Source: Oscillospiraceae bacterium
GTDB lineage: Bacteria; Bacillota; Clostridia; Oscillospirales; Ruminococcaceae
NCBI GenBank assembly: GCA_017483465.1
Contig: JAFUWN010000012.1
Coordinates: 1 to 64,000, forward strand
Length of the DNA: 64,000 nucleotides
Reading direction: 5' to 3'
Shown here: in pieces, positions 1 through 46,094 of the stretch
Layout: each line of letters begins with the position of its first letter
Position numbering within the stretch: the stretch's first letter is position 1
Notes under the pieces: generated by a model
What the model was told of the DNA's origin: nothing
The model's input: the letters and a program-made list of their open reading frames with translations, nothing else
Databases searched by the model: none
Translations under genes and position numbers: made by a program

Positions 1-307
1 AAACCGTTACTGACAAAAAAGGCACTCACACGCATCTTGAAAAGTTAAGATATGAGGTTTTACTGTCTAATCGTACAGTATGTAAAATCTTAAACGTAAG
101 TATGAAAAATATTGCTGCAAAAAAGCAGTTGTGTATGAGTATATCTTGTATGCAAGGGGCGTTGTCAGCCGTCCCACGGTGTTACGTCAGTTTGCCTTAT
201 GGCATTCTAAAAAGGTAGGAGATTTTAAAAAATCGTTTTCACTACCGGATAGTGACAAGCCCCCACTTCTTAGCGAACGAAGTGAGCGTAAGTGGGGGTA
301 GTTGACG
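1..307 (+). mobile_element. 3' relic of an IS200/IS605-like (tnpB-type) element, with candidate omega-RNA end
   Basis: The frame ending at the TAG at 299-301 is open from about 92 and ends in residues LLSERSERKWG, produced by translating a strong terminal hairpin. The hairpin stem is CCCCCACTT (260-268) with AAGTGGGGG (290-298). Upstream lies another small stem, GGTAG (215-219) with CTACC (242-246). A coding 3' end that doubles as a structured RNA followed by a short TTGAC-like end is typical of tnpB elements, whose omega-RNA overlaps the ORF end. A second open frame (3-230) enters from the window edge, so the coding part looks frameshifted. I cannot recognise TnpB catalytic motifs in what remains, so the family assignment rests on the hairpin-in-ORF ending. 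Confidence 0.45.
260..298 (+). repeat. Perfect 9-bp terminal hairpin of the relic element
   Basis: CCCCCACTT and AAGTGGGGG form a perfect 9-bp stem around a 21-nt loop containing AGCGAACGAAGTGAGCG. It lies just before GTTGAC (301-306), the presumed element boundary. From about 307 to 640 the sequence is AT-rich and I see no gene, only a short CCTCC/GGAGG stem near 380-393. Confidence 0.6.
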
Positions 308-640
308 TCAGATACTCCTTAAATGTTTTAAATGTTTTTTATTCCGGTATGGGAAAGATAATGATACATGACAAATAATTCCTCCACTTGGAGGCTGTAT
401 TTTTATATCCTGCAAAAAAGATAACAGTTTTAAACTCCCCTGCAACAGTAATTTGAAAAACAGTTTTTTAGTATAAGTATAACAGATAAAAATCACAGAA
501 TTGTCATAGAAATAGTAAATATGCCGTGAATAAATGTAAATTTTCTGTAAATTTTTGTATCTCCTGACGGAAACAAACCGCCTCTGATTCTTATTATAAC
601 ATATTATGAAATGATTTTCAAGACCGTTTTCTGAAATGGA

Positions 641-669
641 TTGACAAAATATGCCCGGTATGCTATAAT
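641..669 (+). promoter_or_regulatory. Sigma-A promoter of the mutS-like gene
   Basis: TTGACA at 641-646 and TATAAT at 664-669 are separated by exactly 17 bp. The start codon of the mutS-like gene follows at 701, with a GAGG ribosome-binding site at 690-693. Confidence 0.85.
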
Positions 670-700
670 AATGAAAAAATTAAAGAAATGAGGTTCTATT

Positions 701-2308
701 ATGGAACAGATGCTGAAACCATTCAGTCTGCTTGCTCCGGAAATATCAGAAAATTATGCAGAACTTACAGAAAATACAGTCAATGATCTGTCACTTGACT
801 TCCTGATCCAGCATCTTTCAGATTCCGAAGCAGATCGGCAGAGTCTGAAAACGATTCTCCTGAAACTGCCCAAAGACAGCAGAATAATCCAATATCGGCA
901 GGAAATCTATCAGGATTTGAAAAATTATCCGGAACTCTGTGAAACTTTCAGAGAAATTTTTGATTCTGTCCGGTTCGGCAGTCTGGATACGACACATATA
1001 CAATACAGCAAAGCCAGTATCTGGGAACTGATGGACAGACTCCGTTCACTGGAGCAGTACTGTCAGGCTGTTTCTGAAATACAGATATTATTGCAGGATA
1101 AAACTTTCAAATCCCGTGGCATGAAACAGTTTTCTGATTTTATTCATAAAATTTATGATAACAGCGGATTTTCAGAATTATCGCAGGATATTAAATTTCT
1201 GAGTGATGATGTCATGAGTATCCGGAGTATGACACTCGGTGTAAATTTCAACAGTGAATTTGCTCCTTCAGAAATCGGCATAGTTTCGCTGAATACTTAT
1301 GAATATACAGAAAAAGGCTTTCTGGAAAAATTCATCCGGTTTCATCGGAAACGACATCCGGAAGACAAGACCCTGACACCGTTTACCATGCTCTCCCATG
1401 CGGGAAACGGCACCGCAAGCGAAAGTCTGCTGATGAAAAATCTGACCAGTCTGATCGAAGAAATGCTCCCGGCGATGACAGCCAGACTCCGTAAAATTCT
1501 GAAACGCTATACCGATCTGAGCGGTACGGCTCTCGCCGGACTCGGAGACGAACTGTTATTCTATCTCTGTTTTATCAGACTGGAACAGAAGATCAGAAAA
1601 CTCGGTCTGCCGTGCAGTATGCCTGTATTTTCCGATCAGGAAAGCCATCTTGCAGATTTTTATAATATCCGGCTGGCACTCTGCAAACTGGACGGAACGG
1701 TTGAAAATCCGATTATCTGCAATCCTCTGGATTTTACACAGGCACAGACGATTCTGATTCTGACAGGGCCGAATCAGGGCGGGAAAACGATCTTTACGCA
1801 GGGAATCGGCCTGGCATTCCTGATGGCACAGCATGGTGTTTTCACTCCTTGCAGCAGCGGAACAATCCGTATCTGTGACGGAATTTATACCCATTTTCCG
1901 GCAGATGAAAACCGTACTGTCTCATTCGGCAGACTCGGAGAAGAAGCCCTCCGCTTCCGGGAAATCTGCCGTATGGCGACAAAGGACAGTATTTTATTAT
2001 TCAACGAATCCTTTGCTACGACAAGCCATACAGAATCTCTGTATATCGCAGAAAATTCCCTGAAATATCTCTGCTGTCTGGGAGCGAGAACCTGTTTCAA
2101 TACGCATATGCATGAACTGGCTCAGAATCCGGATTCTCTCCGGACAGAACATGCTGTCTGCGGAGCTGTCAGCCTTGTGATGGGGAAACGGGGAAGTGCA
2201 GAGGCCTATCAGGTTCGCTGTACTGCTCCTGACGGTCTGAGTTATGCTTATGAAATTGCCCGTCAGTACGGCATTACGTTTGAACAGCTTTGTGAAGAAC
2301 TCTCCTGA
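701..2308 (+). CDS. MutS-related ATPase lacking the mismatch-recognition domains
   Basis: This 535-aa protein ends in a MutS domain V ABC-type ATPase. The Walker A motif GPNQGGKT is at residues 356-363 and the Walker B-like stretch ILLFNESFATT follows near residue 430, then a conserved FNTHMHEL segment. The preceding part is helical and resembles the MutS core/lever. No mismatch-binding domain I or the PheXGlu motif is present, and there is no Smr nuclease domain. This is the layout of the stand-alone 'MutS family DNA mismatch repair protein' group in Firmicutes, whose substrate is not established. It is monocistronic behind a strong promoter. Its last 46 bp overlap the end of the convergent sortase remnant. 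Confidence 0.85.
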   Translation: MEQMLKPFSLLAPEISENYAELTENTVNDLSLDFLIQHLSDSEADRQSLKTILLKLPKDSRIIQYRQEIYQDLKNYPELCETFREIFDSVRFGSLDTTHIQYSKASIWELMDRLRSLEQYCQAVSEIQILLQDKTFKSRGMKQFSDFIHKIYDNSGFSELSQDIKFLSDDVMSIRSMTLGVNFNSEFAPSEIGIVSLNTYEYTEKGFLEKFIRFHRKRHPEDKTLTPFTMLSHAGNGTASESLLMKNLTSLIEEMLPAMTARLRKILKRYTDLSGTALAGLGDELLFYLCFIRLEQKIRKLGLPCSMPVFSDQESHLADFYNIRLALCKLDGTVENPIICNPLDFTQAQTILILTGPNQGGKTIFTQGIGLAFLMAQHGVFTPCSSGTIRICDGIYTHFPADENRTVSFGRLGEEALRFREICRMATKDSILLFNESFATTSHTESLYIAENSLKYLCCLGARTCFNTHMHELAQNPDSLRTEHAVCGAVSLVMGKRGSAEAYQVRCTAPDGLSYAYEIARQYGITFEQLCEELS

Positions 2309-2618
2309 ATCGGAATCAGTTTTCCGGCCAGTACAGTACGGGCATTTTCAAAATCCGAAGCACAGGTGGATAATGCAAGCAGTCTGTCAGAATCTGCAAT
2401 CTGTACCGGTCTGGAGCAGACTGCATGTGAGAGAAGTGTTTCTGCCCATTCGCAGACAGAAAGATCATATTGATAGACTTTCAGGCTGAGCGGTTCGGAT
2501 TGGTTTCCTGAACAGGGATTTCAGAAAACTCCGGTATCTGTTTATGCTTCTGAGACAGAAAACAGCCTGTAATCAGCAGGAGAAGAATCACAGTCATCCG
2601 GAGCCGAACAGAGTTCAT
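2263..2618 (-). pseudogene. Class B sortase remnant (internal deletion plus frameshift)
   Basis: The start codon overlaps the stop of the upstream pilin gene (ATGA at 2618-2615), so translation would be coupled. The first frame gives an N-terminal membrane anchor (MNSVRLRMTVILLLLITGC) and stops after 46 codons. The other minus frame gives the C-terminal part of a class B sortase, with the catalytic cysteine motif LLALSTCAS (Cys codon 2364-2362) and the catalytic arginine region FENARTVLAGKL. Only about 118 codons remain against roughly 220-250 in intact family members. The middle, with the catalytic histidine, is gone. This is the expected position for the sortase of the pilus-like locus, and it appears non-functional. 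The two-frame reading was made by hand. Confidence 0.8.
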
Positions 2619-3904
2619 ACGGATTTTTTATTTCTGAGGCAGATAATCAGCAGGAACATACCGGCAATGGTAATGCAGACAAACGGCATGACTGTGAAAA
2701 ATACGCCTGTGACAGAAATATCATGCAGAGTATTAATAAATAAAATACTGTCTCTGCCGTCTGATTTCTGAATGCTCTGCTGTTCGGTGGAGAAAGACTG
2801 CTGATCTCCTGTCATGGCAGAAGAAAGTGTAATCGGCTCGTCATTCATAGAGGCCGAAACCGTATACTGATCGGCAGTATCATTGATTTCCGTAACTCTG
2901 ATGGAAGTATGTTCCGGCAGACCGAAGAATATAATACTTTCTCCGTTCCGGAGAGCAGTATCTTCTGTATAGGTTCCGTCAGCGGAAAGCTGTTTCTGTG
3001 TATTTTGGGAATCATAAAAATCAGCCTGAGACTGTATGATTTCATTTGTCAGTGCAAGTGTGAACGGAAACGGATGACTGACATCTGCAAGATCGCCTGC
3101 GGTTTTTTTCCTGATTTCTATATTATGCGTATGATACTGATCTGAAATAATCACAAATGTTCCGGGGTCGGACGGATCGGGAATCTGTTCTGATTCCACA
3201 TCATAGCCAGTGATTTTATCGGCTTCGGATTCTGTTGTATTTTCAAACGAATGACTAGAGGCATTTGCAGAATCATCCTGAAACAGCACATAGCCATAGA
3301 TAATGAAATTATCTTTTTCTGTATTGTATTTTGTATAGACATCGAGATATAATATCTCCTGATACTCGGGATTTCTGCGGATTCCTGCGGATGTCAGAGT
3401 TTCTTCAGAAGTGGTATCTGTAAGCTGATAGCGATAAATTCCGGGCGGATTCAGGCCGTTCTGATAAATAGCAGAAGCATTCAGCTGAATATTCAGATTT
3501 TCATCCACATGAGCAGAATTGATGGTAATCACTGTATTTTCCTGACTGGTATCCGTCAGGCTGTCAGCTCCGAATGTCAGAACAGCTGTAGAATCCCATT
3601 CAGCTTCCGGAGCATTGCCCTTGATTCTGACAGCATTGGCAATACCGGAGCGGATTCCGATCACCTGTACAGAATCGTCATCATTTCTGACGGTCACAGA
3701 GGCATTTTCCACAGCGGCCGGAGCGACAGTATAAGTATAAGTAATATTCGGTTCATAGATCTGACAGCCCTCTGCATTGAACAGAACAATATCTTTTTCG
3801 ATCATGAATTCTGTAACAGAAGTTTCATCAGCATAACAAGGCAGAGCAGTCAGAGACAGTATGACAGCGGCTGCGGACAGGAGTGAGAAAAATTTCTTTT
3901 TCAT
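2615..3904 (-). CDS. Pilin-like surface protein with Spy0128/FctA-type isopeptide domain
   Basis: The protein has 429 aa, with a signal peptide (residues 1-25, ending in CYA), an extracellular region, and a C-terminal helix followed by RNKKSV. The last ~130 residues before the membrane helix match the Spy0128/FctA pilin domain pattern: IEIRKKTAG with the candidate isopeptide lysine, then a FPFTLAL strand, an IRVTEIN segment with the candidate catalytic glutamate, and LFINTLHD with the candidate asparagine. The cell-wall signal is degenerate (ISVTG before the hydrophobic segment instead of LPxTG), and the neighbouring 1411-aa protein shares a VTG ending. It is likely the structural pilin, polymerised by a sortase with SipA help. 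The sortase just downstream is broken. Confidence 0.7.
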   Translation of the reverse strand: MKKKFFSLLSAAAVILSLTALPCYADETSVTEFMIEKDIVLFNAEGCQIYEPNITYTYTVAPAAVENASVTVRNDDDSVQVIGIRSGIANAVRIKGNAPEAEWDSTAVLTFGADSLTDTSQENTVITINSAHVDENLNIQLNASAIYQNGLNPPGIYRYQLTDTTSEETLTSAGIRRNPEYQEILYLDVYTKYNTEKDNFIIYGYVLFQDDSANASSHSFENTTESEADKITGYDVESEQIPDPSDPGTFVIISDQYHTHNIEIRKKTAGDLADVSHPFPFTLALTNEIIQSQADFYDSQNTQKQLSADGTYTEDTALRNGESIIFFGLPEHTSIRVTEINDTADQYTVSASMNDEPITLSSAMTGDQQSFSTEQQSIQKSDGRDSILFINTLHDISVTGVFFTVMPFVCITIAGMFLLIICLRNKKSV

Positions 3905-3910
3905 AGATGA

Positions 3911-6900
3911 TCATCCTTTCTGAGAGATATGGCGGTATTTCAGCAGTAATACCAGAATGATACATAAGGCAGTTCCGGTGATTATGCCGTAAATTTCGGG
4001 ATTTTCATGCTGTCCGGTTACCGGAGCGGAAAACGGAACATAGACAAACCAGATTTCTTCTTCCGGATTCAGAATCTGTGAAGAATCCTGATTCAGATAG
4101 CATTGATATAAATTCCTGCTGATTTCTCCGAAAGTGACAGAAGTAAGATTCTGTTTCTGTGGTATAATATGGCCTGCTTTGTTTTTACTGCCGCTGATGA
4201 TTCCGGAGAATCTGTAATTTTCCGTATCAGTGATCAGCTGATCTGTATGATACAGATACAGGCATTTTTCAGCCGGAAGTATCTGCTGATACACAGATTG
4301 CTTTTCAGTTCTTAGAATCGCATCATAATCATACAGAATATTATGTTCCATCACAGCAACATGGAATTCCGTCCGTGGATTCTGCGTATTATAATAAATA
4401 ATTTTCTGATCTTCCGGATTTTCAGAAGAAGCGGAACTCCGGAGAGAACCGGAAGTTTCAGTGTTATTGCATGTAATAAAATTTTCGTTCTGTTCCTGAA
4501 GAATTTCGATATTCTGAATGGTTCTTATTTCTGTGAATTCCTGTTCATAAACAGGATAATTCCCGAACATATCGCTTGTAGAAAGCAGTTCTGTTCCGGA
4601 TGCGGAATAGCTGGAAGATAATACAAACGCTTCGGATTCTTCATCAGAAAGTGAAATAATTTTTTCTGAAATCTGAATTATATCAGAAGTTTCTGATTCT
4701 TCGGAACGGGAAATTTCTATATAATTATCATTAATTTTATAATAATAAATTTTATAAATATTTTTAATTTCTTCCTGTTTGACAGAAGCAGTATATTGAA
4801 ATTTCTGGTTCATATCTTCCGGAAGAGCGATCGTCTGTTCTTCAAGTGTGACTGTTACGGAAGATTCTTCATATTTTGTTGTTTCCGGATTGGCAGATTT
4901 TGCCCAGTATCCGTACAGAGTCAGAATATCCTGTGTGACAGGCTGACTGAAATCAAACGGAGTCTGCTGATCAGCTGACCAATAGCAGAAAATTTCATCA
5001 GAATCTGAAGAAACAGGCATATCCGCCGGATTTTTAATATTAGTATTAAAATTAATAATTTGATAATAAGTATTATTTTCCTGCTGATAGCCCTGCCATT
5101 CACCGCCCCAGTCAGCATGAGAATTATTTTTATCAAATATAATTTTGCTTCCCCATTGTGCATAGAGGATCACAGGCATTTGGGCATTGACATACAGGAT
5201 ACTTCCGGGGGGATATGCCGTTCCGGAACCGTCTTTTTCAGTATTCCAGCCGAGCAGAATATAATTTCCGTTCTGAAAGCCTGTTCCGCTGCTGATCTGT
5301 ACAGCGGAATGATTGAGCAGATCACTGACAGTCAGAAGCGTATCTGATCTCTGATATTCCGGTTCTATCAGGCTGATCACAGGTTTTCCGGCATCGGCAT
5401 CCGGCAGAATCGCACCGCCGTTGACATCATAGATTATATTTGCTGTAGGAATTTCCTGATAGACTGCCTGCATGATCAGAGTCTGTTTCTCCTGAATCGG
5501 CTCTGTCAGAGCGGAATCAAACCGGAAGCTCTGACCCGGAGTATAGATTTTCTGTTCAGGGTCAAGCTTGATTTTCCAGCCGATAAAATTTTTACCTTCC
5601 GGCGGAACGGCAGTTCGGGTAACAAACAGATCTGCCTGATCGGAATACTGTTCCGTATCCGGAAATGCAAAGATCTGCTGTGTATCGTCGGGGAGCTGAC
5701 CTTCTCCGGCATCGTACTGAATATAATAAATACCGGTCTGTTTCCAGTGCAGACGGAGAAAGAGATTTTCCGTAACCCGTGTGCCGAAGTGATAAGGTGT
5801 TTCTTCTCCGGTATCAGGGTTGACACGATACCAGCCGAGATATTTGTAATTCCCGGGAGATTTCCGGTATCTGACTTCGTTTACAGCTTCTGAAAGATCG
5901 GCAGTATAGCCGGCTCTGCGGTCAGAAATGCTGTTTTCAGCGATATTCCAGTTCTGGTCAAGATGATAGTAATTTCGGTCATGGAGCATATAATAATAGT
6001 CTCCGTCAGGGTCGGGGATATAATTCCGCACAGTCTGGGTATATTCTGTCACAGGGTCGCCCTGATAGGGTTCCCAGAACCAGGTAGACTGCCCGTCAGC
6101 GAGTTCACCGCCGTTGGGGTCGATTTCGATCAGAAACCATTGTGTTTCCCATCCGGCATAGACACGCAGAGGAAAAGCAGGCATTGTTTCATAGACCTGA
6201 TAATGCGGAACACCGCTGCTGTCTCTGGAAGAATCAATTTCTGTTTCAGAGGGTTCATGAAAGAAGACTCTGACAGAACAAGCCGGATCAGCATACCAGC
6301 CTGTAAACTGAAAGCCGGTCGGCGGACGGGGGTCATCCGGAAGAAAATTTTCTGTATTCTGCTGATAGGGCAGGGAAGTTTCTGCGAGAATCTGAGAATT
6401 GACAGAATTGATAAATTCTATCGGATAAGAATTTCTGGTATAATAAAAATAAAGATGATGATTCCAGTTATTTTCCCATTCGGTATGCTGATCTATAATC
6501 ACTTGTGTACCGTCCGGAGCGGCAGTTTCAAAGCGTGTAAAGCCCTCGATCTGCAAAAAATCTTCTTCATAATAGAGATAATTGAAATCATTCTCGACAG
6601 TTTCCAGATTTTCATGACAGGGAACATAATTTTTTTGACGATAAATTCTGACAGTTTCAGCTTCCGGAAGAGCTTCGGCATAATAATGAAAATATCGTTT
6701 TGTATGGGAAGTACTGGTATAAGTAAATGTAATATCTTCATCAGGCATCAGGAGCATTTGTGTCAGTCTCTGGGTATACTGTGCCGAACCGCCGGGAGTC
6801 CAGGAAGTATTGAAATTAATATCTGTCCGGGGATAAGAGATACCGTCAGAGCCGGTAAAATTCCAGATATGACTGATATCCGCACCATACAGAGCACGGA

Positions 6901-8146
6901 CGGTTTTGATCACTCTGTTATGATTCCGGAATGTGAATGTATGGATATTTCTGTCATAATACACATCAAGAATTGTATTGCCTGTGCCGTCTGCGGTGAG
7001 GGCATCGCTGCAATGACTGTAAGCAAAGCCGGGAATCTGATAATTTTTATCACTGTCATCCACTGTGACGATACTTCCGGTCAGGGTACTGAGAGTAAAG
7101 CTTTCAGAAAAATCATAAGATTTTTCTGTATCCGGAAGATCGGGAGAATCCGTTGCTTTTTGTTTCCAGATGATGACAGTATAATCCGAAAGCCCCGGCG
7201 ACCAGTGTGCAGATAACGTCAGTTCTGACTGATTTTTCAGATATAGCTTATGATTTTTGATTTCAAAATCATCAGAAGAACCGGAAGCAAGCAGATTGCC
7301 TTCAGAATCTGTGACCGGAATCTGATCTTGTGTATACCAGCCGTCAAATACATAGCCGGAACGCTCCGGAACCGGAATATCAGAAAGAAGAAAGCCCTCT
7401 TCTGAAAAGAACGATTCCGGCGGAATATAAGTTGCTCCGGAACCGGTTTCACCTGTATCAAAAATCAACCAGCTGATTTTTTCAAAAACCGGATAAAGAT
7501 GTGCGGTTTCTGAAATCAGGAACGGTTCTGTTTCGATTCTGACCGGATTTCCCAGATCTGTCAGCACAGCACCAGCCTGTGAGACAGGTTCTTTTGACCA
7601 GCCCTTGAAAGCCATCTGTGAAACGGCTGTTTCTGATGATTCAGGCATATCATAGCTGACTGTCATATCCTGAATTTTAATTTCTGCGGTCTGATCAGTC
7701 AGCTCGCCCCGTCTGACTGCGGAAACCGGAAAACTGTCTGTCACGGTATCATACTGATTATGAAAAACAGCATAAGCATAATTCTGAAATACGGCATGGA
7801 GAATCACAGTTTCTGTTTGAGTTACTTCCGGAATTGTTTCAAAATCGAATAAATTACCGTTTTCGTCATACCAGCCGGCAAATACGGCATGACTGTCCGG
7901 ATTTTCAGGCAGCTGCGGAATGACGGGTTTTTCATGATTTGCGACTGTCTGCTGACAGACTTTCTTTGTTCCGGAAACAGGAAAATAATACGGCTGATAT
8001 ACGCCGTTCTGATCCTGTATCTGAAACTGATAAGTCCGCAGGGGAGGGAAATTTGCTTCATAGCTCTCTGTACCCTGCACCGGAACAGGAGGCAGAAGCA
8101 GCAGGATTCCCGTCAGAAAAGAAAAAATCCGGTATTTTAATTTCAT
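3911..8146 (-). CDS. Large cell-surface adhesin with InlB-type B-repeats
   Basis: The protein has 1411 aa, with a signal peptide (MKLKYRIFSFLTGILLLLPP...) and many Listeria-Bacteroides/InlB B-repeat units, recognisable by FAGWY, FDGWYT, FTGWYAD, YLGWYRV and LGWNTE cores followed by ...LYAQW or LHAVF. A short wall-sorting region near the end reads APVTGQ, followed by a membrane helix and RHISQKG. It lies between the SipA-like and pilin genes and ends 6 bp before the pilin start. It is probably the tip or ancillary pilin of the same fibre. The ligand cannot be predicted. Long plus-strand open frames inside this region are shadows caused by the biased codon use of the repeats. Confidence 0.75.
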   Translation of the reverse strand: MKLKYRIFSFLTGILLLLPPVPVQGTESYEANFPPLRTYQFQIQDQNGVYQPYYFPVSGTKKVCQQTVANHEKPVIPQLPENPDSHAVFAGWYDENGNLFDFETIPEVTQTETVILHAVFQNYAYAVFHNQYDTVTDSFPVSAVRRGELTDQTAEIKIQDMTVSYDMPESSETAVSQMAFKGWSKEPVSQAGAVLTDLGNPVRIETEPFLISETAHLYPVFEKISWLIFDTGETGSGATYIPPESFFSEEGFLLSDIPVPERSGYVFDGWYTQDQIPVTDSEGNLLASGSSDDFEIKNHKLYLKNQSELTLSAHWSPGLSDYTVIIWKQKATDSPDLPDTEKSYDFSESFTLSTLTGSIVTVDDSDKNYQIPGFAYSHCSDALTADGTGNTILDVYYDRNIHTFTFRNHNRVIKTVRALYGADISHIWNFTGSDGISYPRTDINFNTSWTPGGSAQYTQRLTQMLLMPDEDITFTYTSTSHTKRYFHYYAEALPEAETVRIYRQKNYVPCHENLETVENDFNYLYYEEDFLQIEGFTRFETAAPDGTQVIIDQHTEWENNWNHHLYFYYTRNSYPIEFINSVNSQILAETSLPYQQNTENFLPDDPRPPTGFQFTGWYADPACSVRVFFHEPSETEIDSSRDSSGVPHYQVYETMPAFPLRVYAGWETQWFLIEIDPNGGELADGQSTWFWEPYQGDPVTEYTQTVRNYIPDPDGDYYYMLHDRNYYHLDQNWNIAENSISDRRAGYTADLSEAVNEVRYRKSPGNYKYLGWYRVNPDTGEETPYHFGTRVTENLFLRLHWKQTGIYYIQYDAGEGQLPDDTQQIFAFPDTEQYSDQADLFVTRTAVPPEGKNFIGWKIKLDPEQKIYTPGQSFRFDSALTEPIQEKQTLIMQAVYQEIPTANIIYDVNGGAILPDADAGKPVISLIEPEYQRSDTLLTVSDLLNHSAVQISSGTGFQNGNYILLGWNTEKDGSGTAYPPGSILYVNAQMPVILYAQWGSKIIFDKNNSHADWGGEWQGYQQENNTYYQIINFNTNIKNPADMPVSSDSDEIFCYWSADQQTPFDFSQPVTQDILTLYGYWAKSANPETTKYEESSVTVTLEEQTIALPEDMNQKFQYTASVKQEEIKNIYKIYYYKINDNYIEISRSEESETSDIIQISEKIISLSDEESEAFVLSSSYSASGTELLSTSDMFGNYPVYEQEFTEIRTIQNIEILQEQNENFITCNNTETSGSLRSSASSENPEDQKIIYYNTQNPRTEFHVAVMEHNILYDYDAILRTEKQSVYQQILPAEKCLYLYHTDQLITDTENYRFSGIISGSKNKAGHIIPQKQNLTSVTFGEISRNLYQCYLNQDSSQILNPEEEIWFVYVPFSAPVTGQHENPEIYGIITGTALCIILVLLLKYRHISQKG

Positions 8147-8264
8147 GCAGTATCATCTCCCTGATAAGATACCCGGAAACAAAGCAGATCTGCCATAAGA
8201 GAAAGCACGGCAAGCAACAGCAGCAGCCAGTCTGTTCAGGAATTGCATAATTTCCCTCCGGAGT

Positions 8265-8684
8265 TCAGAAATTATTTCTTCTGATGACGAGAATAATTTT
8301 TCCTTTGATTTCATTTTGATGTACAGTTCCGTCATATCTGGATGTAGAAGAATAAATATCAGGTTCTGAAACATGATGATTGTTAATCACAAGCTGTTCC
8401 TGCTCTGTGATCTCGACAGTATCACCGCCGACGGCCACAATCCGGCCGAGATAGAGTGTATTGTTTTTTTGGAGTACAATGACATCCTGTGCATGGAAAT
8501 CCTGTTCCAGACGGTCATAGAGTAAAAAATCTTTTGCATGGATATTCGGAGCCATATCTGCATTCGGAGCAGTAACCGCCCCGATGATGAAGCCGGACAG
8601 AATCCAGAAGACTGCGATAATCAGCAGAAAATTAATCAGGAAATTCTGCACCGGACTGCCGGATAGATGATTCTGTGTGCTCAT
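8265..8684 (-). CDS. SipA-like signal peptidase I homologue without catalytic Ser/Lys
   Basis: This 139-aa protein has an N-terminal membrane anchor (residues 14-38) and the S26 fold signatures. The motif that should read SMxP is DMAP, with Asp43 in place of the nucleophile serine. The motif that should read K-R-V-x-G-x-x-G-D is GRIVAVGGD, with Gly80 in place of the lysine base. The same Ser-to-Asp and Lys-to-Gly replacement is known in Streptococcus pyogenes SipA, which has no peptidase activity but is needed for pilus polymerisation (family knowledge). The start has an AAGGAGGG site (8695-8688). It heads the pilus-like operon, so a pilus-assembly role is a reasonable inference. Confidence 0.8.
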   Translation of the reverse strand: MSTQNHLSGSPVQNFLINFLLIIAVFWILSGFIIGAVTAPNADMAPNIHAKDFLLYDRLEQDFHAQDVIVLQKNNTLYLGRIVAVGGDTVEITEQEQLVINNHHVSEPDIYSSTSRYDGTVHQNEIKGKIILVIRRNNF

Positions 8685-8822
8685 ATGCCCTCCTTGTGCG
8701 GACTGATGAATCTATTTTATTATGACATGGCAGATATTATTCATCTGTTCAGAAATTATATAAATTTTTGATATAATACTCATGGATTTTATCAATAAAA
8801 TACGGCATTTTGTCAGAAATAA

Positions 8823-8857
8823 AACAGCCTTCCGGAATCTGTTTCCGAAAGGCTGTT
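8823..8857 (-). terminator. Rho-independent terminator after the DUF624 gene
   Basis: AACAGCCT (8823-8830) and AGGCTGTT (8850-8857) form a stem. On the minus strand it is followed by TTTATTT. It lies a few bases beyond the stop of the DUF624 reading frame. Confidence 0.75.
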
Positions 8858-8861
8858 ATGA

Positions 8862-9841
8862 TTAAGAAATGACTTTTCCTTTTTTCTTAGGTTTGCCTGA
8901 GGGTTCTTTCTGATTTTTCTCTGATTTAGAAGCAGGAGCTTCGACAGGGGTTTCTTTTCCGCCCATATCTTCAAAGAGATTTTCACCCTGATTATCTGCA
9001 AAATTCTGTTCCGGACTGGTTTCGCCCCGCTGGGCATAATACGGATTGATGACATATTTCTGAATCACCGGATAGCAATTGAAGACAATCATGAAAGCTA
9101 CAAAGCCGGTCGGGATAAATATCCAGAAAAGTGCCATAATATAGGGAAATAAGAATGTTAATAATCCGAATCCGCCCATAACCAGAATCGTAATCAGAAG
9201 CGTGATGAAATTCTTTTTCAGAGCGATAAAGCTCAGAGCAAGGGAATTTTTCAGAATATTTTTCATACTCAGATCAGTTGAGACAATCATGAGATAAGCA
9301 TAGAAGCTCATCAGCGTGACGACAATGGCAATACTGAGTGTCAGGATAAACAGGACATAATAAAACGTCTCACCGCCGGAGCCTTGTTCCCGGAGCTGGG
9401 CAATAATTTTCGGATAGACATAGGAACTGCTTCCGACAGAAGCCGCCATGACCAGATCAATAATTCCCATCGGACAGGCCTGTCTGAAACAGCTCCGGAA
9501 CGTCCTGAAAAATTCATCCATCAGAAATGTCGGCTTTTCGAGCGAGAAATTTCTTAATATTTTGTACATCCGGCAATCACAGGGCCGAACCATACGGCAA
9601 ATAAAATCACAAATCCGGCAGCGATCAGCATTGCCGTGTTAGTATAATCCTGAATAAAATAATAAATGACAACAATTGCCAGAAGCAAAGGCAGAAATGC
9701 GGCTGCCATCAGCATATTGATCTCTATAATTTTCCAGAATTTTCCGAATGCTAACTCCCAGTACCGGAAAAACGGTTTTTTCTTAGGTGCATTTTTGGCA
9801 ATGCCTGCACCGGTTTTTTCATAATTTCCGAACAGACTCAT
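8862..9841 (-). pseudogene. DUF624 (YesL-like) membrane protein split by a -1 frameshift
   Basis: Two overlapping minus-strand frames make up one DUF624 protein of about 326 aa. The first (9841-9554) gives the conserved start (MSLFGNYEK...FFRYWELAFGKFWK, then PVIAGCTK) and stops. The second supplies ILRNFSLEKP onward, with further membrane helices and a charged tail. The family normally reads PxxAGxTxILRNF without a break. The frames join exactly at a run of four A (plus-strand TTTT at 9560-9563). One extra A would restore the full protein with no residue lost. This is a homopolymer contraction, a sequencing error, or slippage at AAAA. The function of the family is not established, although yesL neighbours carbohydrate genes in Bacillus. 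Confidence 0.8.
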
Positions 9842-9867
9842 AAATTTTTACATCATTCCTTTCAGGT

Positions 9868-10422
9868 TCAGGCAAATCTGGTTAATAAAAAATTCTGCAA
9901 TACTCCCAGAATTATAAGAAATAAAAATAAAACTGCAAAACGGATGATATATAATTTCACAGAAACTTCGTCATCCTGTGTTCTGTCGCAGAGAAGCCCG
10001 GTAATCTGCATGGAAAACCGCAGAGCCTCTCTTGCAGCGAACAGCATCACAAAAGAGCTGAAATAAATATAAGGCATGATCATCAGAAGAGAGGGAACAG
10101 ACGACAGAAAATGATTTTGTTCATAGAGCTGTTCCAGAATCGCTCCGGCGGCCGCACCTCTCAGGAATAACATACACGGCACCAGCGGCAGACCTGTCGC
10201 AGAAAGCCCCAGGACTGCCGTCATCGCCAGCCAGAACACAGGAGCCGCAATGCAGTAAGCCCGGCATTCTGTCAGAATACCCATACCCTGCCGGAAAGTC
10301 TGATTATTCCAGATACTCCAGTCAGGGTGCAAGGCCCGGAGAATACTGCCTGCTGCTGCTCCCAGAAGCATAATCAGAAATAATAATATAATCTGTGTAT
10401 TTCGTTTTTTGAACAGATTCAT
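9868..10422 (-). CDS. SpoIIM-like multi-pass membrane protein
   Basis: A 184-aa protein with about five hydrophobic helices and a conserved-looking FLRGAAAGAIL segment, resembling stage II sporulation protein M. SpoIIM takes part in septal peptidoglycan removal during engulfment (family knowledge). Start: the ATG at 10422 has AGGAG about 9 nt upstream, whereas the longer frame would use TTG two codons earlier. It lies 26 bp upstream of the DUF624 gene, so the two are probably co-transcribed. The similarity is by overall hydrophobic pattern and size, so it could be another DUF95-type protein. Confidence 0.5.
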   Translation of the reverse strand: MNLFKKRNTQIILLFLIMLLGAAAGSILRALHPDWSIWNNQTFRQGMGILTECRAYCIAAPVFWLAMTAVLGLSATGLPLVPCMLFLRGAAAGAILEQLYEQNHFLSSVPSLLMIMPYIYFSSFVMLFAAREALRFSMQITGLLCDRTQDDEVSVKLYIIRFAVLFLFLIILGVLQNFLLTRFA

Positions 10423-10481
10423 GCACAATCACTCCTGTATTTTTAATACAGTCTATGTGCCTGTCCGTTTGATTATGCGGA

Positions 10482-11291
10482 TTATTTCGAGAGTTCGTAA
10501 GCTCTTTTTGTGCAGGCAGTGCAGGCCTGATCAACAGTTTCTTCGAGCTTGCCTTTATAGAGTTCATCCAGTCCGGCGAGTGTCGTACCGCCCGGAGAAG
10601 AGACCATTTTGATTAACTCTTCGATACTGTAGCCGGAATCTGTGAGCATTTTTGCCGAGCCGATCAGACTTTGTGCGAACAGCGGCAGAGAAACTTCTTC
10701 AGGGATATTTTCTTTTTTCGCATAATCGACAAAAGCTTTTGCGAATAAATAGATAAATGCCGGACTGCTGCCGTTGATGGCAATAATCTCTTTCATCTTA
10801 TTTTCCGGAAGCTGAGCAGAAATGCCGCAGGCATTGAAAATACTGCATACAGTCTGGAACTCTTCTTCTGTAGTGGGTTCTGCTTTGGCGAGTGCGGAAG
10901 CTCCTGCACCCAGAAGCAGGGGCGTATTCGGCATAACAAGAATCACTTTTGCATTTGCGAGGGTTTTACTGCGGATATATTCGGCAGTAATTCCGGCGGC
11001 GATCGAAACAAAGACAGTATTTTCTGTCGTACCGTCCTTGATCTGATCGAGAACCTGTTCAAACATCTGGGGCTTGACGGCCAGGAAAATATATTTGCAG
11101 TTCTGCATGACTTCCAGACCGGATGTACAAGCCTTGATTCCGGATTCTGTTAATTTCGCAAGCTTGTCAGAATCAGGATCAAAAGCAGATACTTCCATAT
11201 TCTGCGATAGATCGCAATTCATAATGCCTTTCATAATGGCAGAACCCATATTGCCTGCACCGATAAAGCCGACTTTGATTTTTTCACTCAT
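10482..11291 (-). CDS. proC: Pyrroline-5-carboxylate reductase
   Basis: This enzyme reduces pyrroline-5-carboxylate to proline with NAD(P)H in the cytoplasm. The Rossmann fingerprint GFIGAGNMGSAI starts at residue 8. The VMPNTPLLLGAG segment and the C-terminal signature region with SPGGTTLAGLDEL are typical. Length is 269 aa from the ATG at 11291. The in-frame ATG four codons upstream overlaps the AAAGGA ribosome-binding site, so it is unlikely. It is probably monocistronic, with its own promoter. No proA or proB is nearby. Confidence 0.95.
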   Translation of the reverse strand: MSEKIKVGFIGAGNMGSAIMKGIMNCDLSQNMEVSAFDPDSDKLAKLTESGIKACTSGLEVMQNCKYIFLAVKPQMFEQVLDQIKDGTTENTVFVSIAAGITAEYIRSKTLANAKVILVMPNTPLLLGAGASALAKAEPTTEEEFQTVCSIFNACGISAQLPENKMKEIIAINGSSPAFIYLFAKAFVDYAKKENIPEEVSLPLFAQSLIGSAKMLTDSGYSIEELIKMVSSPGGTTLAGLDELYKGKLEETVDQACTACTKRAYELSK

Positions 11292-11344
11292 GATAAAAAA
11301 CATCCTTTCAGATTAAAAATTTAGAAATAAAAAACACTGCTTTT

Positions 11345-11373
11345 ATTATACAACAAACTGCATAAAAAAGCAA
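11345..11373 (-). promoter_or_regulatory. Sigma-A promoter of proC
   Basis: On the minus strand, TTGCTT (11373-11368) and TATAAT (11350-11345) are separated by 17 bp and placed about 50 bp before the proC start. Confidence 0.7.
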
Positions 11374-11394
11374 GTGTTTTTTTGTGATAATTTT

Positions 11395-11982
11395 TCAGGA
11401 AACTGCGGAACCGTTCCGGAACGCTCTCCGGTAGGCCAGCAGAGCCGCCGGAAGCAGTAATAATAACAAGGGAATATCTGCGACCAGTTCAAGCAGATTC
11501 TTGACTAATCTTGCGGAGATCGCCGCACTGAAAGCCTGTTTCGGAATAAATCCGTAATGCATATTCAGGAACGTGTTCAGACAGAGATTAATTATCATCA
11601 CATCCAGAAGCCTTGCAATGACGGCACGAATCATCAGAGATACATTTTCATTCAGGCCGAATAACTGGAAATGCTCCTGTTTGCGATATAAGCAGATACC
11701 ATAGATTAAGCCCTGCACGCCGGCAACAAGCGTATAGACCGGCAGAAATGCACCGTCCGGATTCGCCAGATAGCCGACAATATCGCAGAGCAGTCCGGCA
11801 GCAAAGCCCATCACAGGGCCTGTCAGCATTCCGATCACGGCAATTGCCAGAAATGCAAAATTAATTTTCGTAAAGCTCAGATTAATCGTAAATTTCTCGA
11901 TAATCATAGAAACGGCGATAAACATGCCCGTAACCGTCAGAGCACGGATGTCTTTGAATTCTTTTGCAGATTTGATAAACAT
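11395..11982 (-). CDS. folT: Folate ECF transporter substrate-binding subunit
   Basis: A 195-aa S component with six membrane helices. The N-terminal region ALTVTGMFIAVSMIIEKFTI...KINFAFLAIAVIGML is typical of FolT. It would bind folates and work with a shared EcfA/A'/T module, which is not in this window. Start: the ATG at 11982 has an AAAAGGAGG site just upstream. The longer frame starting at 12012 would translate the riboswitch expression platform, including that site, and is rejected. Expression is controlled by the THF riboswitch immediately upstream. Confidence 0.9.
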   Translation of the reverse strand: MFIKSAKEFKDIRALTVTGMFIAVSMIIEKFTINLSFTKINFAFLAIAVIGMLTGPVMGFAAGLLCDIVGYLANPDGAFLPVYTLVAGVQGLIYGICLYRKQEHFQLFGLNENVSLMIRAVIARLLDVMIINLCLNTFLNMHYGFIPKQAFSAAISARLVKNLLELVADIPLLLLLLPAALLAYRRAFRNGSAVS

Positions 11983-11988
11983 AATAAA

Positions 11989-12038
11989 AAATACCTCCTT
12001 TTCCGCTGTCATGACAGGAACTGAAAAAAGAGGTATTT
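11989..12038 (-). promoter_or_regulatory. Shine-Dalgarno-sequestering hairpin of folT
   Basis: On the minus strand AAATACCTCTTTTTTC (from 12038) is nearly the reverse complement of GAAAAGGAGGTATTT (down to 11989). The stem buries the folT ribosome-binding site. This is the natural expression platform for the THF aptamer upstream and points to control of translation. Confidence 0.7.
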
Positions 12039-34986: not shown

Positions 34987-36966
34987 ATGGCTAAAAAACA
35001 GGATTACGGAAACGAAAGCATTACTATGCTGAAAGGTGCGGAGAAAGTCCGCAAACGTCCGGGGGTGATTTTCGGTTCGGATGGACTTGACGGCTGTGCT
35101 CATTCGATTTTTGAAATTATCTCGAATTCGATTGACGAAGCAAGAGCCGGTTTCGGCGATAAGATTATTATCACCCGCTGGAATAACGGTGAAATCGAAG
35201 TCGAGGACTTCGGCAGAGGCTGTCCGGTGGATTATAACAATTCTGAAAAAAGATATAACTGGGAACTTGTCTATTGTGAATTATATGCAGGCGGCAAATA
35301 TGACAATGCAGAAGATTCCTATGATTATTCTTTAGGACTGAACGGCCTCGGACTCTGTGCGACACAGTATGCTTCTGAATTCATGGATGTAACTGTACAC
35401 AGAGATCAGACAGAATATACCCTGCATTTCGAGAAAGGCGAGAATATCGGCGGATTAAAAAAATCTCCCTGGAATCAGAAACAGACCGGAACCAAAACCA
35501 GATGGAAACCGGATCTGGAAGTCTTCACAGAAATTCATGTGCCGGATGAATTTTTTCATGATACGCTCCGCAGACAGGCGGTTGTGAATCCGAATTTATT
35601 GTTTGTCTATCGTTCCCAGCAGGAAGACGGCAGTTTTCTGGAAAAAGAATATTTCTACGAAAACGGTATTTCTGACTATGTACAGGAAATCACAGGCGAG
35701 AAAGCCATGACTTCTGTCCAGTACTGGACAGCTGAACGCATGGGACGTGACAGAGCCGATAAACCAGATTATAAAGTCAAATTATCCGTAGCAATGACAA
35801 TCTCTAATCAGGTGAATCTGCTGGAATATTATCATAATTCAAGTTTTCTGGAGCATGGCGGTTCTCCAGATAAAGCCGTGCGGAGTGCGTTTCTGTCGCA
35901 GATCAACAGTTATCTGAAAAATAACAATAAGCTTCAGAAAAACGAATCTTCGGCTTCTTTTGATGATATTAAAGACTGTCTGGTGCTGGTATCTTCCTCG
36001 TTCTCGACACAGACTTCTTATGAGAATCAGACGAAAAAAGCAATTACCAACAAATTCATTCAGGAAACTATGACGGAATTCCTGAAACATCAGCTGGAAG
36101 TCTATTTTATTGAAAATCCGGAAGAAGCGAATAAAATTGCAGAACAAGTCCTGATTAACAAGAGAAGCCGTGAAAATGCCGAAAAAACCAGATTAAACAT
36201 CAAGAAAAAATTAGCAGGCAATATTGATCTTGCCAATATGGTGGAAAAATTTGTTGACTGCCGTACCAAAGACATTACCCGAAGAGAATTATATATCGTA
36301 GAAGGTGATTCCGCCCTCGGAGCGGTCAAGCTCGCAAGAGATGCCGAATTTCAGGCCGTCATCCCCGTCAGAGGCAAAATTCTGAACTGTCTGAAAGCCG
36401 ATTATCCTAAGATTTTCAAAAGCGATATTATCACGGATTTATTGAAAGTCCTCGGGTGCGGTGTGGAAGTCAAGCTGAAAAATACCGGCAATATTGCACA
36501 GTTCAGCATGAACAATCTGAGATGGAGCAAAATTATCATCTGTACCGATGCGGATGTTGACGGCTTCCAGATTCGTACTCTGATTCTGACCATGCTTTAC
36601 AGATTAACACCGACTTTGATTCAGAAAGGCTATGTCTATATTGCAGAATCGCCTTTATATGAAATCAATACAAAAGTCAAGACCTATTTTGCCTATACAG
36701 AAAAAGAACGTCAGGACATTCAGAAAAAAATCGGCAGTGCGAAATATACAATTCAGAGATCAAAAGGACTCGGCGAGAACGAACCCGAAATGATGAGCCT
36801 GACGACTATGAATCCGGAAACCAGAAGATTAATCAAAGTCATGCCTTCTGAGGCCGAACAAATGCGTGATACATTTGATTTACTGCTCGGCGATAATCTC
36901 TCCGGCAGAAAAGAGCATATCGCTCTGCATGGTGCGGACTATATCGAATTGGTAGATGTATCTTAA
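34987..36966 (+). CDS. Type IIA DNA topoisomerase B subunit (GyrB/ParE-like), unpaired
   Basis: The 659-aa protein has the full B-subunit order. The GHKL ATPase has EIISNSIDEA, DFGRGCP and the LGLNGLGLCATQYAS lid glycines. A transducer domain follows, then Toprim with YIVEGDSALGA near residue 440 and TDADVDGFQIRT near 515, and a C-terminal SKGLGEN...RRLIKV region. It would change DNA topology together with an A subunit, but none is adjacent and a terminator follows. It is divergent from standard GyrB (EGDSALG instead of EGDSAGG). Start: the SD AAGGAG (34968-34973) is 13 nt from this ATG. Two nearer ATGs (34975, 34980) open frames of two and four codons only. Confidence 0.88.
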   Translation: MAKKQDYGNESITMLKGAEKVRKRPGVIFGSDGLDGCAHSIFEIISNSIDEARAGFGDKIIITRWNNGEIEVEDFGRGCPVDYNNSEKRYNWELVYCELYAGGKYDNAEDSYDYSLGLNGLGLCATQYASEFMDVTVHRDQTEYTLHFEKGENIGGLKKSPWNQKQTGTKTRWKPDLEVFTEIHVPDEFFHDTLRRQAVVNPNLLFVYRSQQEDGSFLEKEYFYENGISDYVQEITGEKAMTSVQYWTAERMGRDRADKPDYKVKLSVAMTISNQVNLLEYYHNSSFLEHGGSPDKAVRSAFLSQINSYLKNNNKLQKNESSASFDDIKDCLVLVSSSFSTQTSYENQTKKAITNKFIQETMTEFLKHQLEVYFIENPEEANKIAEQVLINKRSRENAEKTRLNIKKKLAGNIDLANMVEKFVDCRTKDITRRELYIVEGDSALGAVKLARDAEFQAVIPVRGKILNCLKADYPKIFKSDIITDLLKVLGCGVEVKLKNTGNIAQFSMNNLRWSKIIICTDADVDGFQIRTLILTMLYRLTPTLIQKGYVYIAESPLYEINTKVKTYFAYTEKERQDIQKKIGSAKYTIQRSKGLGENEPEMMSLTTMNPETRRLIKVMPSEAEQMRDTFDLLLGDNLSGRKEHIALHGADYIELVDVS

Positions 36967-44402: not shown

Positions 44403-45164
44403 TTAATCGCTCATAAGAGCACTCATGTCATACATGCCGGTTTTCTGATTTTTCAGGAATACGGCCGCATTGACTGCACCGACAGCGAAGACTTCTTTAG
44501 AAGCCGCACTGTGTGAGAGTGTGATGACTTCATCATGACCGGCAAAAATAATATCATGTTCACCGACAATCGTACCGCCACGGATGGCATGTAAGCCGAT
44601 TTCTGTTTTTTCACGCTTCTGTCTCTTGGAATGTCTGTCATAGACATAATGATACTGCTGATCAAGAGACTGATTTATCGCATCGGCAATCATGAGAGCC
44701 GTACCGCTGGGGGCATCGATTTTCTGATTATGATGTTTCTCGACAATTTCAATATCAAACTGATTTCCCAGAATTGCCGCTGCTTTTTTGGCAAGCTGTA
44801 CCAGCAGGTTAATCCCCAGAGACATATTGAACGAGAAGAACACCGGAATGCGTTCAGAAGCTTTCCTGATCTTAGCAATCTGTTCTTCTGAATAGCCGGT
44901 TGTTGCCAGTACGCACGGAACACCGTTCACAAGGCAGTAATTCAGCAGAGTGTCAAGTACTGCCGGATTGGAAAAATCAATGATCACATCCGGCTTTTCC
45001 GGCAAGGCTGAGAAATCTTGATAGATTTTAAAATCTGCATAAGATTCTGTTCTGAGATCGACTCCGGCAAGGACAGTACAGTCCTCACGGCTTGCGACGG
45101 CCGCCGCAACTGCGTGCCCCATTTTTCCGGAAGCTCCGGAGATAACAATTTTTGTCTGTTCCAT
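44403..45164 (-). CDS. dapB: 4-hydroxy-tetrahydrodipicolinate reductase
   Basis: Reduces the DapA product in lysine/diaminopimelate synthesis. The 253-aa protein has the dinucleotide motif ISGASGKMGHAV at residue 8, DFSNPAVLDTLL, ATTGYSEEQ, the substrate-binding EKHHNQKIDAPSGTAL segment (catalytic His and Lys) near 145, and IRGGTIVGEHDI near 195. Third gene of the lysine-riboswitch operon. Confidence 0.97.
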   Translation of the reverse strand: MEQTKIVISGASGKMGHAVAAAVASREDCTVLAGVDLRTESYADFKIYQDFSALPEKPDVIIDFSNPAVLDTLLNYCLVNGVPCVLATTGYSEEQIAKIRKASERIPVFFSFNMSLGINLLVQLAKKAAAILGNQFDIEIVEKHHNQKIDAPSGTALMIADAINQSLDQQYHYVYDRHSKRQKREKTEIGLHAIRGGTIVGEHDIIFAGHDEVITLSHSAASKEVFAVGAVNAAVFLKNQKTGMYDMSALMSD

Positions 45165-45191
45165 AGCTTTTCTCCTCCTGATGTAAGAAAA

Positions 45192-46094
45192 TTAATCCAC
45201 AACAGAAACAGGCATACCCAGTCTCTGCATTGCAGACATCAGACGGGCAACGTTATCCGTACTCATCTTGGTAAGCGGCATTCTGCACGCTCCGGAAGGC
45301 ATTCCGAGACGGTTCATCGCTTCCTTGACCGGAATCGGGTTCACTTCGCAGAACAGGGAATTGATCAGCTCCAGATATTTCAGCTGCATTTCTCCGGCCT
45401 TCCGGAAATCGTTATTCAGACAGAGCTGTGTGATTTCATGTGTTTCTTTCGGCAGAATATTGGATAATACAGAGATGACACCCTTGCCGCCCAGAGACAT
45501 GATCGGGACAATCATATCATCATTGCCGCTGTAGATATCAATCAGATCACCGCAGACGGCCGCAACCTGTGCAGTATAGCTGATATTGCCGGAAGCTTCC
45601 TTGATAGCGGCGATATTCTTGTGATGAGCCAGCTTTTCTACTGTTTCCACAGCGATATTCATGCCGGTTCTGCCGGGGATATTATAGAGAATAATCGGAA
45701 TCTTGACACTGTTTGCAATGATCGTGAAATGATCCAGCAGGCCTGCCTGTGTGGTCTTGTTATAATAAGGCGTTACTAATAACAAGCCGTCTGCACCGAG
45801 ATTCTGTGCTTCTACAGAGAGTTCAATTGCATAGCGTGTGTCATTGCTGCCTGTTCCGGCGATGACCGGAATTCTGTGATTGGTATAATCCACCGCAAAC
45901 TTGATACACTCACGATGTTCTTCATCGGACATTGTAGAAGATTCTCCGGTCGTACCGCAGATGACAATAGCGTCTGTGCCGTTGTCAATCTGATAGTCGA
46001 TATTTTTTCCGAGACCCTCGTAATTAATAGAGCCGTCAAGATTGAACGGTGTGGTAATGGCAACAGCCGCACCGGTAAAAATCGTATTTTTCAT
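45192..46094 (-). CDS. dapA: 4-hydroxy-tetrahydrodipicolinate synthase
   Basis: Condenses pyruvate with aspartate semialdehyde, the first committed diaminopimelate step. The 300-aa TIM barrel has GTTGESSTM near residue 47, the catalytic tyrosine in ILYNIPGRTGMN near 137, and the Schiff-base lysine in AAIKEASGN near 165. All active-site residues are normal. Confidence 0.97.
   Translation of the reverse strand: MKNTIFTGAAVAITTPFNLDGSINYEGLGKNIDYQIDNGTDAIVICGTTGESSTMSDEEHRECIKFAVDYTNHRIPVIAGTGSNDTRYAIELSVEAQNLGADGLLLVTPYYNKTTQAGLLDHFTIIANSVKIPIILYNIPGRTGMNIAVETVEKLAHHKNIAAIKEASGNISYTAQVAAVCGDLIDIYSGNDDMIVPIMSLGGKGVISVLSNILPKETHEITQLCLNNDFRKAGEMQLKYLELINSLFCEVNPIPVKEAMNRLGMPSGACRMPLTKMSTDNVARLMSAMQRLGMPVSVVD

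What the first reader, a model, noticed from the sequence alone, without database searches (positions are those of the whole stretch)
2263..8684. SipA-type pilus-like locus in a gut-type Clostridium, apparently without a working sortase
Four minus-strand genes run in order: dead signal peptidase homologue, 1411-aa adhesin, Spy0128/FctA-like pilin, class B sortase remnant. This parallels the streptococcal FCT pilus islands, which encode SipA, FctA-type pilins and a class B sortase. Here the wall signals are degenerate (ISVTG, PVTG), and the sortase has lost its middle. Either the fibre is no longer assembled, or another sortase in the genome does the job.
Basis: partly seen in the sequence, partly recalled or inferred. 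Interest (0 to 1): 0.8.

Follow-up and report, generated by a model that had tools for sequence, protein, structure and literature searches.

The report
Ruminococcus-type pilus island without sortases
A Ruminococcus-type bacterium carries a streptococcal-style pilus gene cluster that still encodes the fibre protein and the adhesin but has lost both of the sortase enzymes found in its relatives' clusters, so it probably can no longer build that pilus by itself.

Summary
The four elements are real. The pilin matches DUF7601 and streptococcal T-antigen pilins. The S26 protein matches S. pyogenes SipA best and shows SipA's Asp/Gly exchange of the catalytic Ser/Lys. The remnant at 2299-2618 is a class B sortase with catalytic Cys and Arg kept, middle lost, frame broken. 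Two points change. The wall signals are not degenerate: [IV]S[VIP]TG is shared by 13 of 13 closely aligned pilins, window included. And intact islands of relatives encode TWO class B sortases: a Spy0129-like one, usually directly after SipA, and a SrtB-like one at the 3' end. The window keeps only a C-terminal tip of the first (8158-8229, E 0.0099). SipA lacks about 30 residues, the adhesin three blocks; the pilin keeps 31 of 32 invariant positions. Searches found no orthologue of either sortase elsewhere in the genome, though five other class B sortases exist. Best reading: a former two-sortase SipA pilus island that cannot build its pilus unaided. Two other eroded islands were seen.

The parts
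8265..8684 (-). SipA-like protein (inactive signal-peptidase fold), 139 aa; Asp in place of catalytic Ser, Gly in place of catalytic Lys; lacks about 30 internal residues (box E region) that the 7 other aligned sequences have
8158..8229 (-). C-terminal tip of a deleted long class B sortase (Spy0129-like with C-terminal extension); model positions 391-412 of 428; lies where 25 of 29 annotated relative loci carry that gene directly after SipA
   Evidence: score 68 vs shuffled maximum 45 with L055; not significant with L053 or L018; E 0.0099 among 2325 pieces
3911..8146 (-). Large adhesin, 1411 aa, List-Bact repeats, C-terminal APVTG + membrane helix + charged tail; lacks three blocks of about 81, 238 and 257 aa present in the 8 aligned relatives
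2615..3904 (-). FctA/Spy0128-type major pilin, 429 aa, DUF7601 domain, ISVTG wall signal; 31 of 32 family-invariant positions kept
2508..2618 (-). N-terminal piece (membrane anchor) of the short SrtB-like sortase remnant
   Evidence: E 0.097; weak alone, placed by order
2299..2478 (-). C-terminal piece of the short SrtB-like sortase remnant with LSTC and the catalytic Arg; in another frame than the N-piece; the catalytic His region is gone
   Evidence: E 5.1e-13; E 4.4e-15

Best explanation
This is a formerly complete SipA-type, class-B-sortase pilus island (SipA - polymerising sortase - giant adhesin - FctA-type pilin - SrtB-like anchoring sortase) that has lost both sortases by internal deletion and can no longer polymerise or anchor its own pilus. 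Shown: gene identities, the five-gene layout in relatives, loss of the short sortase, the internal losses in SipA and adhesin, the intact pilin. Well supported but resting on a short match plus position: the tip of the long sortase (its absence as a gene is shown). Inferred: that the long sortase is the polymerase (closest solved structure Spy0129) and the short one the wall anchor (SrtB-like); that pilin and adhesin, if expressed, remain as membrane-held monomers or are anchored inefficiently by another sortase; that the loss is recent, because the pilin is still constrained and the sortase remnant still readable.
For: Relatives: 28 of 29 annotated SipA-bearing loci match the long-sortase profile (25 directly after SipA; in L084, L085, L087 a pilin lies between), 11 of 29 show the short one; many loci are cut by contig ends or belong to lineages without it. 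Seven distinct loci carry all five genes on one contig: L061, L070, L074, L076, L078, L080 and L165; in L061 and L165 the short sortase runs into the end of the stretch. The window keeps only tips of both sortases. Whole-genome searches find no orthologue, and in the tree the long (99/97) and short (96/98) clades leave out all five other class B sortases of the genome. In S. pyogenes the pilin, this sortase and SipA are required (passages of PMC3019223, and PMC4049620). SipA lost 13 of 41 and the adhesin 64 of 289 family-invariant positions by deletion. Erosion recurs: L095 lacks the long sortase, with SipA fused in frame to the adhesin; L168 keeps SipA and the first 100 of 428 model positions of the long sortase, with no pilin or adhesin match in the stretch.
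Against: Pilin and adhesin stay open over 1840 codons, the block losses inside SipA and adhesin keep the frame, ribosome-binding-like sequence precedes the three genes (read by eye), wall signals are intact, and the pilin keeps 31 of 32 invariant positions: all compatible with a product still under selection. Five other class B sortases could act in trans. At ungapped invariant positions the window's SipA and adhesin are not worse than some relatives. One genome only, 95% complete; no other strain of the species was found.
Confidence: 0.7

Rival explanations
1. The pilus or its subunits are still processed in trans by one of the other class B sortases in the genome (C29, C47, C17, C18 twice), so loss of the local enzymes was tolerated.
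For: Five class B sortases with open frames elsewhere (two of the five reach NCBIfam's class B cut-off, and an intact short sortase of G027 does not reach it either); the C29 one scores best with the short-sortase profile (E 8e-48). Wall signals and the conserved Lys between the pilin domains are kept.
Against: None falls in the clades of the two lost sortases (long branches, no AU test run). Wall signals next to two of them are of other types (IPSTG/MPSTG by C29; PPYTG by C47). In S. pyogenes M1 the dedicated sortase is essential for polymerisation (PMC3019223 passages).
Confidence: 0.2
2. The locus has been converted from a pilus to non-polymerised surface proteins: trimming of adhesin and SipA was selected, and pilin and adhesin act as membrane-held or singly anchored adhesins.
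For: Four block losses in retained genes (three in the adhesin, one in SipA) keep the frame, while the short-sortase remnant is frame-broken; pilin constraint is kept.
Against: The count is conditioned on having seen open frames. SipA and adhesin lost positions invariant in the aligned relatives. No second strain to measure selection.
Confidence: 0.2
3. Assembly artefact: the missing stretches are collapsed or mis-joined sequence in a draft genome.
For: Draft assembly of 118 contigs; the neighbouring gene 8862-9841 looks frameshifted relative to relatives; the locus begins about 2.3 kb from the contig's start.
Against: No N in 1-12000; the contig is 86.7 kb long; the missing sortases are found nowhere else in the genome; several separate losses would have to arise by error, those in SipA and adhesin all in frame.
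Confidence: 0.07

Closest known systems
Streptococcus pyogenes FCT-2/3/4 pilus islands (cpa, sipA, fctA, class B sortase Spy0129, fctB)
   Same: SipA with the Asp/Gly exchange, an FctA/T-antigen-type pilin, a large adhesin, and in relatives a Spy0129-like class B sortase
   Different: Here no working sortase; the adhesin is a List-Bact repeat protein; Ruminococcus relatives have two class B sortases, and the Spy0129-like one has a C-terminal extension that scores as FILTED in the one member scanned, whereas Spy0129 lacks the C-terminal transmembrane anchor of class C pilus sortases
Streptococcus pneumoniae pilus islet 2 (pitA, sipA, pitB, srtG1, srtG2)
   Same: SipA plus two sortases; srtG2 is a pseudogene in most analysed pneumococcal islets and pitA is a pseudogene in S. 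pneumoniae, a close precedent for erosion (PMC3178606 passages); PitB matches the pilin profile weakly (E 7.1e-4)
   Different: Pneumococci keep srtG1 and make a pilus; here both sortases are gone and SipA is shortened
Intact Ruminococcus islands (R. albus KH2T6 L074, R. albus AR67 L080, R. flavefaciens UBA2946 L061)
   Same: Homologous SipA, adhesin, pilin and both sortase types
   Different: They keep both sortases, full-length SipA and the three adhesin blocks missing here

Membership tests
SipA (inactive signal-peptidase-like pilus factor) | Type I signal peptidase fold, closest to SipA | tested here: met
   By sequence only: PDB SipA 4n31 E 2.9e-14 with the window protein; a profile of five relatives gives 3.3e-33 against 4n31, first active signal peptidase 1.6e-11
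SipA (inactive signal-peptidase-like pilus factor) | Asp at the catalytic Ser and Gly at the catalytic Lys site (Asp48, Gly85 in S. pyogenes) | tested here: met
   Alignment A1: Asp in 6 of 8 rows including the window, Gly in 8 of 8; residues from PMC4049620 passages, which also report that changing that Asp did not stop polymerisation
SipA (inactive signal-peptidase-like pilus factor) | Full-length fold including the conserved D-S-R..G (box E) segment | tested here: not met
   About 30 residues missing in the window, present in the 7 other rows; 13 of 41 invariant positions gapped
FctA/Spy0128-type class-B pilus major pilin | DUF7601 domain / match to T-antigen pilins | tested here: met
   PF24547 50.2 bits, cut-off 27; T18.1 pilin E 4.1e-10; profile vs SPy0128 3b2m E 1.2e-11
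FctA/Spy0128-type class-B pilus major pilin | Lys-Asn intramolecular isopeptide with catalytic Glu | tested here: inconclusive
   K266, E339 and N391 are present; E339 is invariant and K266 and N391 nearly so in 15 pilins. Their role is inferred; no structure was obtained (eight submissions met a busy machine)
FctA/Spy0128-type class-B pilus major pilin | C-terminal wall-sorting signal with TG motif, membrane helix and charged tail | tested here: met
   ISVTG in the window; [IV]S[VIP]TG in 13 of 13 rows of the close alignment; more distant pilins vary (e.g. L084, L085, L087, L170-L173)
FctA/Spy0128-type class-B pilus major pilin | Covalent polymerisation through an inter-subunit Lys | not testable with these tools
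   An invariant Lys (K230) lies between the two domains; its role is inferred by analogy with Lys161 of Spy0128
Class B sortase (remnant 2299-2618) | Class B sequence with catalytic Cys, Arg and His in one open frame | tested here: not met
   C-piece E 4.4e-15 with LSTC and Arg kept; the His region is absent and the frame broken
SipA-type class-B pilus island (FCT / PI-2 kind) | At least one working sortase in the island | tested here: not met
   Only tips of two sortases; neither orthologue found elsewhere in the genome

The most novel reading that the evidence does not exclude
A sortase-assembled pilus has been turned into non-polymerised surface proteins: the lineage discarded both dedicated class B sortases and trimmed SipA and the adhesin in frame, while pilin and adhesin stay under selection as membrane-held or trans-anchored adhesins.
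Probability: 0.2. Interest if true: 0.6.

Novelty: new variant of a known kind. Interest (0 to 1): 0.45.

Why it matters
The SipA-type class B pili in the papers seen here are streptococcal. Their relatives here are a five-gene, two-sortase island in rumen and gut Ruminococcus (R. albus and R. flavefaciens among them), and the window gives a case in which the sortases and parts of SipA and the adhesin are lost while the pilin stays intact. It offers a natural test of whether a class B pilin and adhesin are useful without a dedicated sortase, and a comparison set for what SipA and each sortase do. The listings of the full-text searches (one search showed 15 of 89 papers, 10 of 21) showed no paper whose title or abstract start describes such an island in Ruminococcus; the library misses most subscription journals.

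Tried and rejected
Degenerate wall signals: rejected, close relatives share the motif. Survival of a lost sortase elsewhere in the genome: not found. A first tree with loosely trimmed sortases was replaced by one on the catalytic core. The pilin search of genome contigs with the single window sequence found no relative; the second scan, with a SipA alignment, worked. 394 order-level genomes gave 3 with a SipA match at E <= 1e-20 and 396 family-level genomes gave 10, both counts including the window's own genome. A pilin match was found in 4 of 61 genomes searched, own genome included. The short-sortase profile at E <= 1e-30 finds something in 25 of 38 same-genus genomes, but only G027 and G018 reach E about 1e-131; the neighbours of the others (next best 1.5e-71) were not examined. 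Constraint test: at ungapped invariant columns the window SipA (5 of 28 changed) and adhesin (34 of 225) are not unique, since L069 (5 of 28), L095 (7 of 30) and adhesin L070 (67 of 258) change as much or more; only the deleted positions set the window apart. In the same test on the short-sortase C-piece the window changed 3 of 9 positions (one of them a missing end residue) against 0 to 2 of 6 to 8 in relatives, too few to date the loss. The promoter scan gave 21 sites against 15.5 expected.
Full report
OBSERVATION. On the minus strand of the window lie, in order, a 139-aa ORF (8265-8684), a 1411-aa ORF (3911-8146), a 429-aa ORF (2615-3904) and a broken stretch (about 2299-2618). The 429-aa protein matches Pfam DUF7601 (E 4.7e-13, 50.2 bits, cut-off 27) and streptococcal T-antigen major pilins (T18.1, E 4.1e-10); a profile of it and 14 relatives finds SPy0128 (E 1.2e-11). 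The 139-aa protein matches Peptidase_S26, and its best solved relative is S. pyogenes SipA (E 2.9e-14). The adhesin carries Listeria-Bacteroides repeats.

THE SHORT SORTASE REMNANT. Same-genus genomes G027 and G018 carry, in the same order, adhesin - pilin - an intact 294-aa class B sortase. A profile of 11 such sortases (A4) scanned against 2325 six-frame pieces (15 aa or more) of the window hits the 2266-2520 piece with E 4.4e-15 (model 222-281 of 283) and, weakly, the adjacent 2484-2627 piece (E 0.097, model 5-40). The two pieces are in different frames and the part with the catalytic His is missing.

A SECOND SORTASE IS ALSO GONE. In genome contigs, 53 loci were fetched with a SipA alignment; 29 (L060-L087 and L095) were annotated with home-made profiles, the other 24 (L088-L094 and L096-L112, weaker or partial matches) were left out. 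28 of 29 match the profile of a second class B sortase; in 25 it directly follows SipA, in L084, L085 and L087 a pilin lies between, and L095 has none. In L083, L084, L085 and L087 only its catalytic part matches, without the C-terminal extension; L069 is cut by the contig end. The profile (A3, 14 sequences) is closest to Spy0129 (3psq, E 3.8e-53; next 4y4q 3e-50), the S. pyogenes pilus polymerase. The L061 member, the only one scanned, also scores for a C-terminal FILTED domain (NF052597). The short type is closest to Lmo2181 (5jcv, E 4.2e-41) with SrtB-family 4y4q almost level (6.6e-41) and 3psq further down (7.5e-37), so its role as an anchor is an inference. Seven distinct loci carry SipA, long sortase, adhesin, pilin and short sortase on one contig (L061, L070, L074, L076, L078, L080; L165; in L061 and L165 the short sortase runs into the end of the stretch). 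L166 and L167 repeat L078 and L074. In the window only 118 bases separate SipA from the adhesin, and they hold a stretch like the C-terminal tip of the long sortase (8158-8229, model 391-412 of 428, E 0.0099; second best among 2325 pieces after the short remnant's own catalytic piece, E 0.00064). The alignment score is 68 against a shuffled maximum of 45 with L055, but within the shuffled range with L053 and L018. This match is short; its weight comes from lying exactly at the expected place. That no long-sortase gene is there at all does not depend on it.

OTHER LOSSES. SipA lacks about 30 residues, including the conserved D-S-R..G segment, that the seven other aligned sequences have. The adhesin lacks three blocks of about 81, 238 and 257 aa and has a shorter N-terminal leader; the seven other relatives show no gap of 20 aa or more against L061, except the contig-truncated 5' end of L016. 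These losses keep the frame. The pilin keeps 31 of 32 positions that are invariant in 12 relatives, among them K37, K230 and E339.

WALL SIGNALS. In 13 of 13 rows of the close pilin alignment, window included, the motif is [IV]S[VIP]TG; more distant pilins vary. Ruminococcus-type adhesins carry mostly PVTG, also PITG, APTG or AATG. The window's ISVTG and APVTG are therefore ordinary.

OTHER SORTASES IN THE GENOME. A Pfam sortase search found nine places in the genome, eight over the cut-off. Class B enzymes with open frames are C29, C47, C17 and two on C18; two of the five reach NCBIfam's class B cut-off, and the intact short sortase of G027 does not reach it either. Two class C sortases are on C29. 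Profiles of the two lost types find no orthologue, and in the core tree the long clade (99/97, 21 rows) and short clade (96/98, 11 rows) leave out all five; the own rows have long branches and no AU test was run, so their exact place is unsure. DUF7601 was found once in the genome.

HOW IT WOULD WORK. In S. pyogenes the major pilin, the class B sortase and SipA are needed together: passages read in PMC3019223 and PMC4049620. By that standard this locus has one of the three intact. The most likely state is that no pilus is built from it; pilin and adhesin, if made, remain at the membrane by their C-terminal helices or are anchored in trans. The readable sortase remnant and unharmed pilin suggest a recent loss (inference; one search was too small to date it).

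RECURRENCE AND PLACE. Two other islands are eroded: L095 (sheep omasum Ruminococcus) has SipA fused in frame to the adhesin with no long sortase, and its adhesin frame is interrupted; L168 has SipA and only the first 100 model positions of the long sortase, with no pilin or adhesin match in the 19.9-kb stretch. Such loci sit at different places in the same genus: adhesin-pilin pairs next to a parE-like gene in G018 and G027, a SipA-pilin-sortase island next to a queA-like gene in G035 (gene names recalled from sequence), and here between a MutS-domain gene and a gene without a Pfam match; in L176-L179 the homologue of that last gene has no island in its 1.5-kb downstream flank. The G027 five-gene island (C43 plus C14) is joined by inference across contig ends; it is not counted among the seven.

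KNOWN OR NEW. The nearest published precedent seen is pneumococcal PI-2, with SipA and two sortases, where srtG2 is a pseudogene in most analysed islets and pitA is one in S. pneumoniae (passages of PMC3178606). Loss of both sortases with the pilin kept was not seen in the listings (among them) or passages read. I rate it a new variant of a known kind: of moderate interest, mainly for the two-sortase Ruminococcus islands it led to and for the natural-knockout pattern.

Noticed in passing
window 8862-9841 (-): The neighbouring gene appears as two overlapping ORFs (9554-9841 and 8862-9593), while its matches in 26 same-genus genomes lie in open frames of 311-463 aa (one with a stop inside): a frameshift or a sequencing error.
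   Followed up: partly
window 34987-36966 and 44403-48617: parE-like and dapB/dapA/asd/queA-like genes (names recalled from sequence), which have pilin-adhesin pairs or a SipA island beside them in G018/G027 and G035, lie in this window; the only DUF7601 match found in the genome is elsewhere. The islands occupy variable sites.
   Followed up: partly
L061:10511-11743: The SipA-linked, Spy0129-like class B sortase has a C-terminal extension scoring as a FILTED domain (NF052597, 49.2 bits, cut-off 40); only this member was scanned. A full-text search for FILTED with sortase gave no paper.
   Followed up: partly
L095:2107-8259: Natural in-frame fusion of SipA to the adhesin with the long sortase missing, and the adhesin frame interrupted further on.
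   Followed up: partly
L168:9386-10260: SipA with a long sortase cut after about 100 model positions and no pilin or adhesin match in the stretch: a nearly vanished island.
   Followed up: partly
L022:11119-11892 (genome contig C29): A separate pilus island with two class C sortases and one class B sortase has a small wall-anchored protein gene split by one in-frame stop codon.
   Followed up: no
L057 and L058 (G008, G005): SipA-like proteins with Ser at the Ser site but Gly at the Lys site (S-A-Y-P motif), a different half-inactive type; in L057 it lies beside a pilin and a class B sortase.
   Followed up: no
window 8823-8857 (-): A strong terminator-like hairpin (15 pairs) lies between the neighbouring gene and SipA, so the locus may be its own transcription unit; 16 terminator-like sites were found in 2200-9100 against 4.6 expected.
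   Followed up: no
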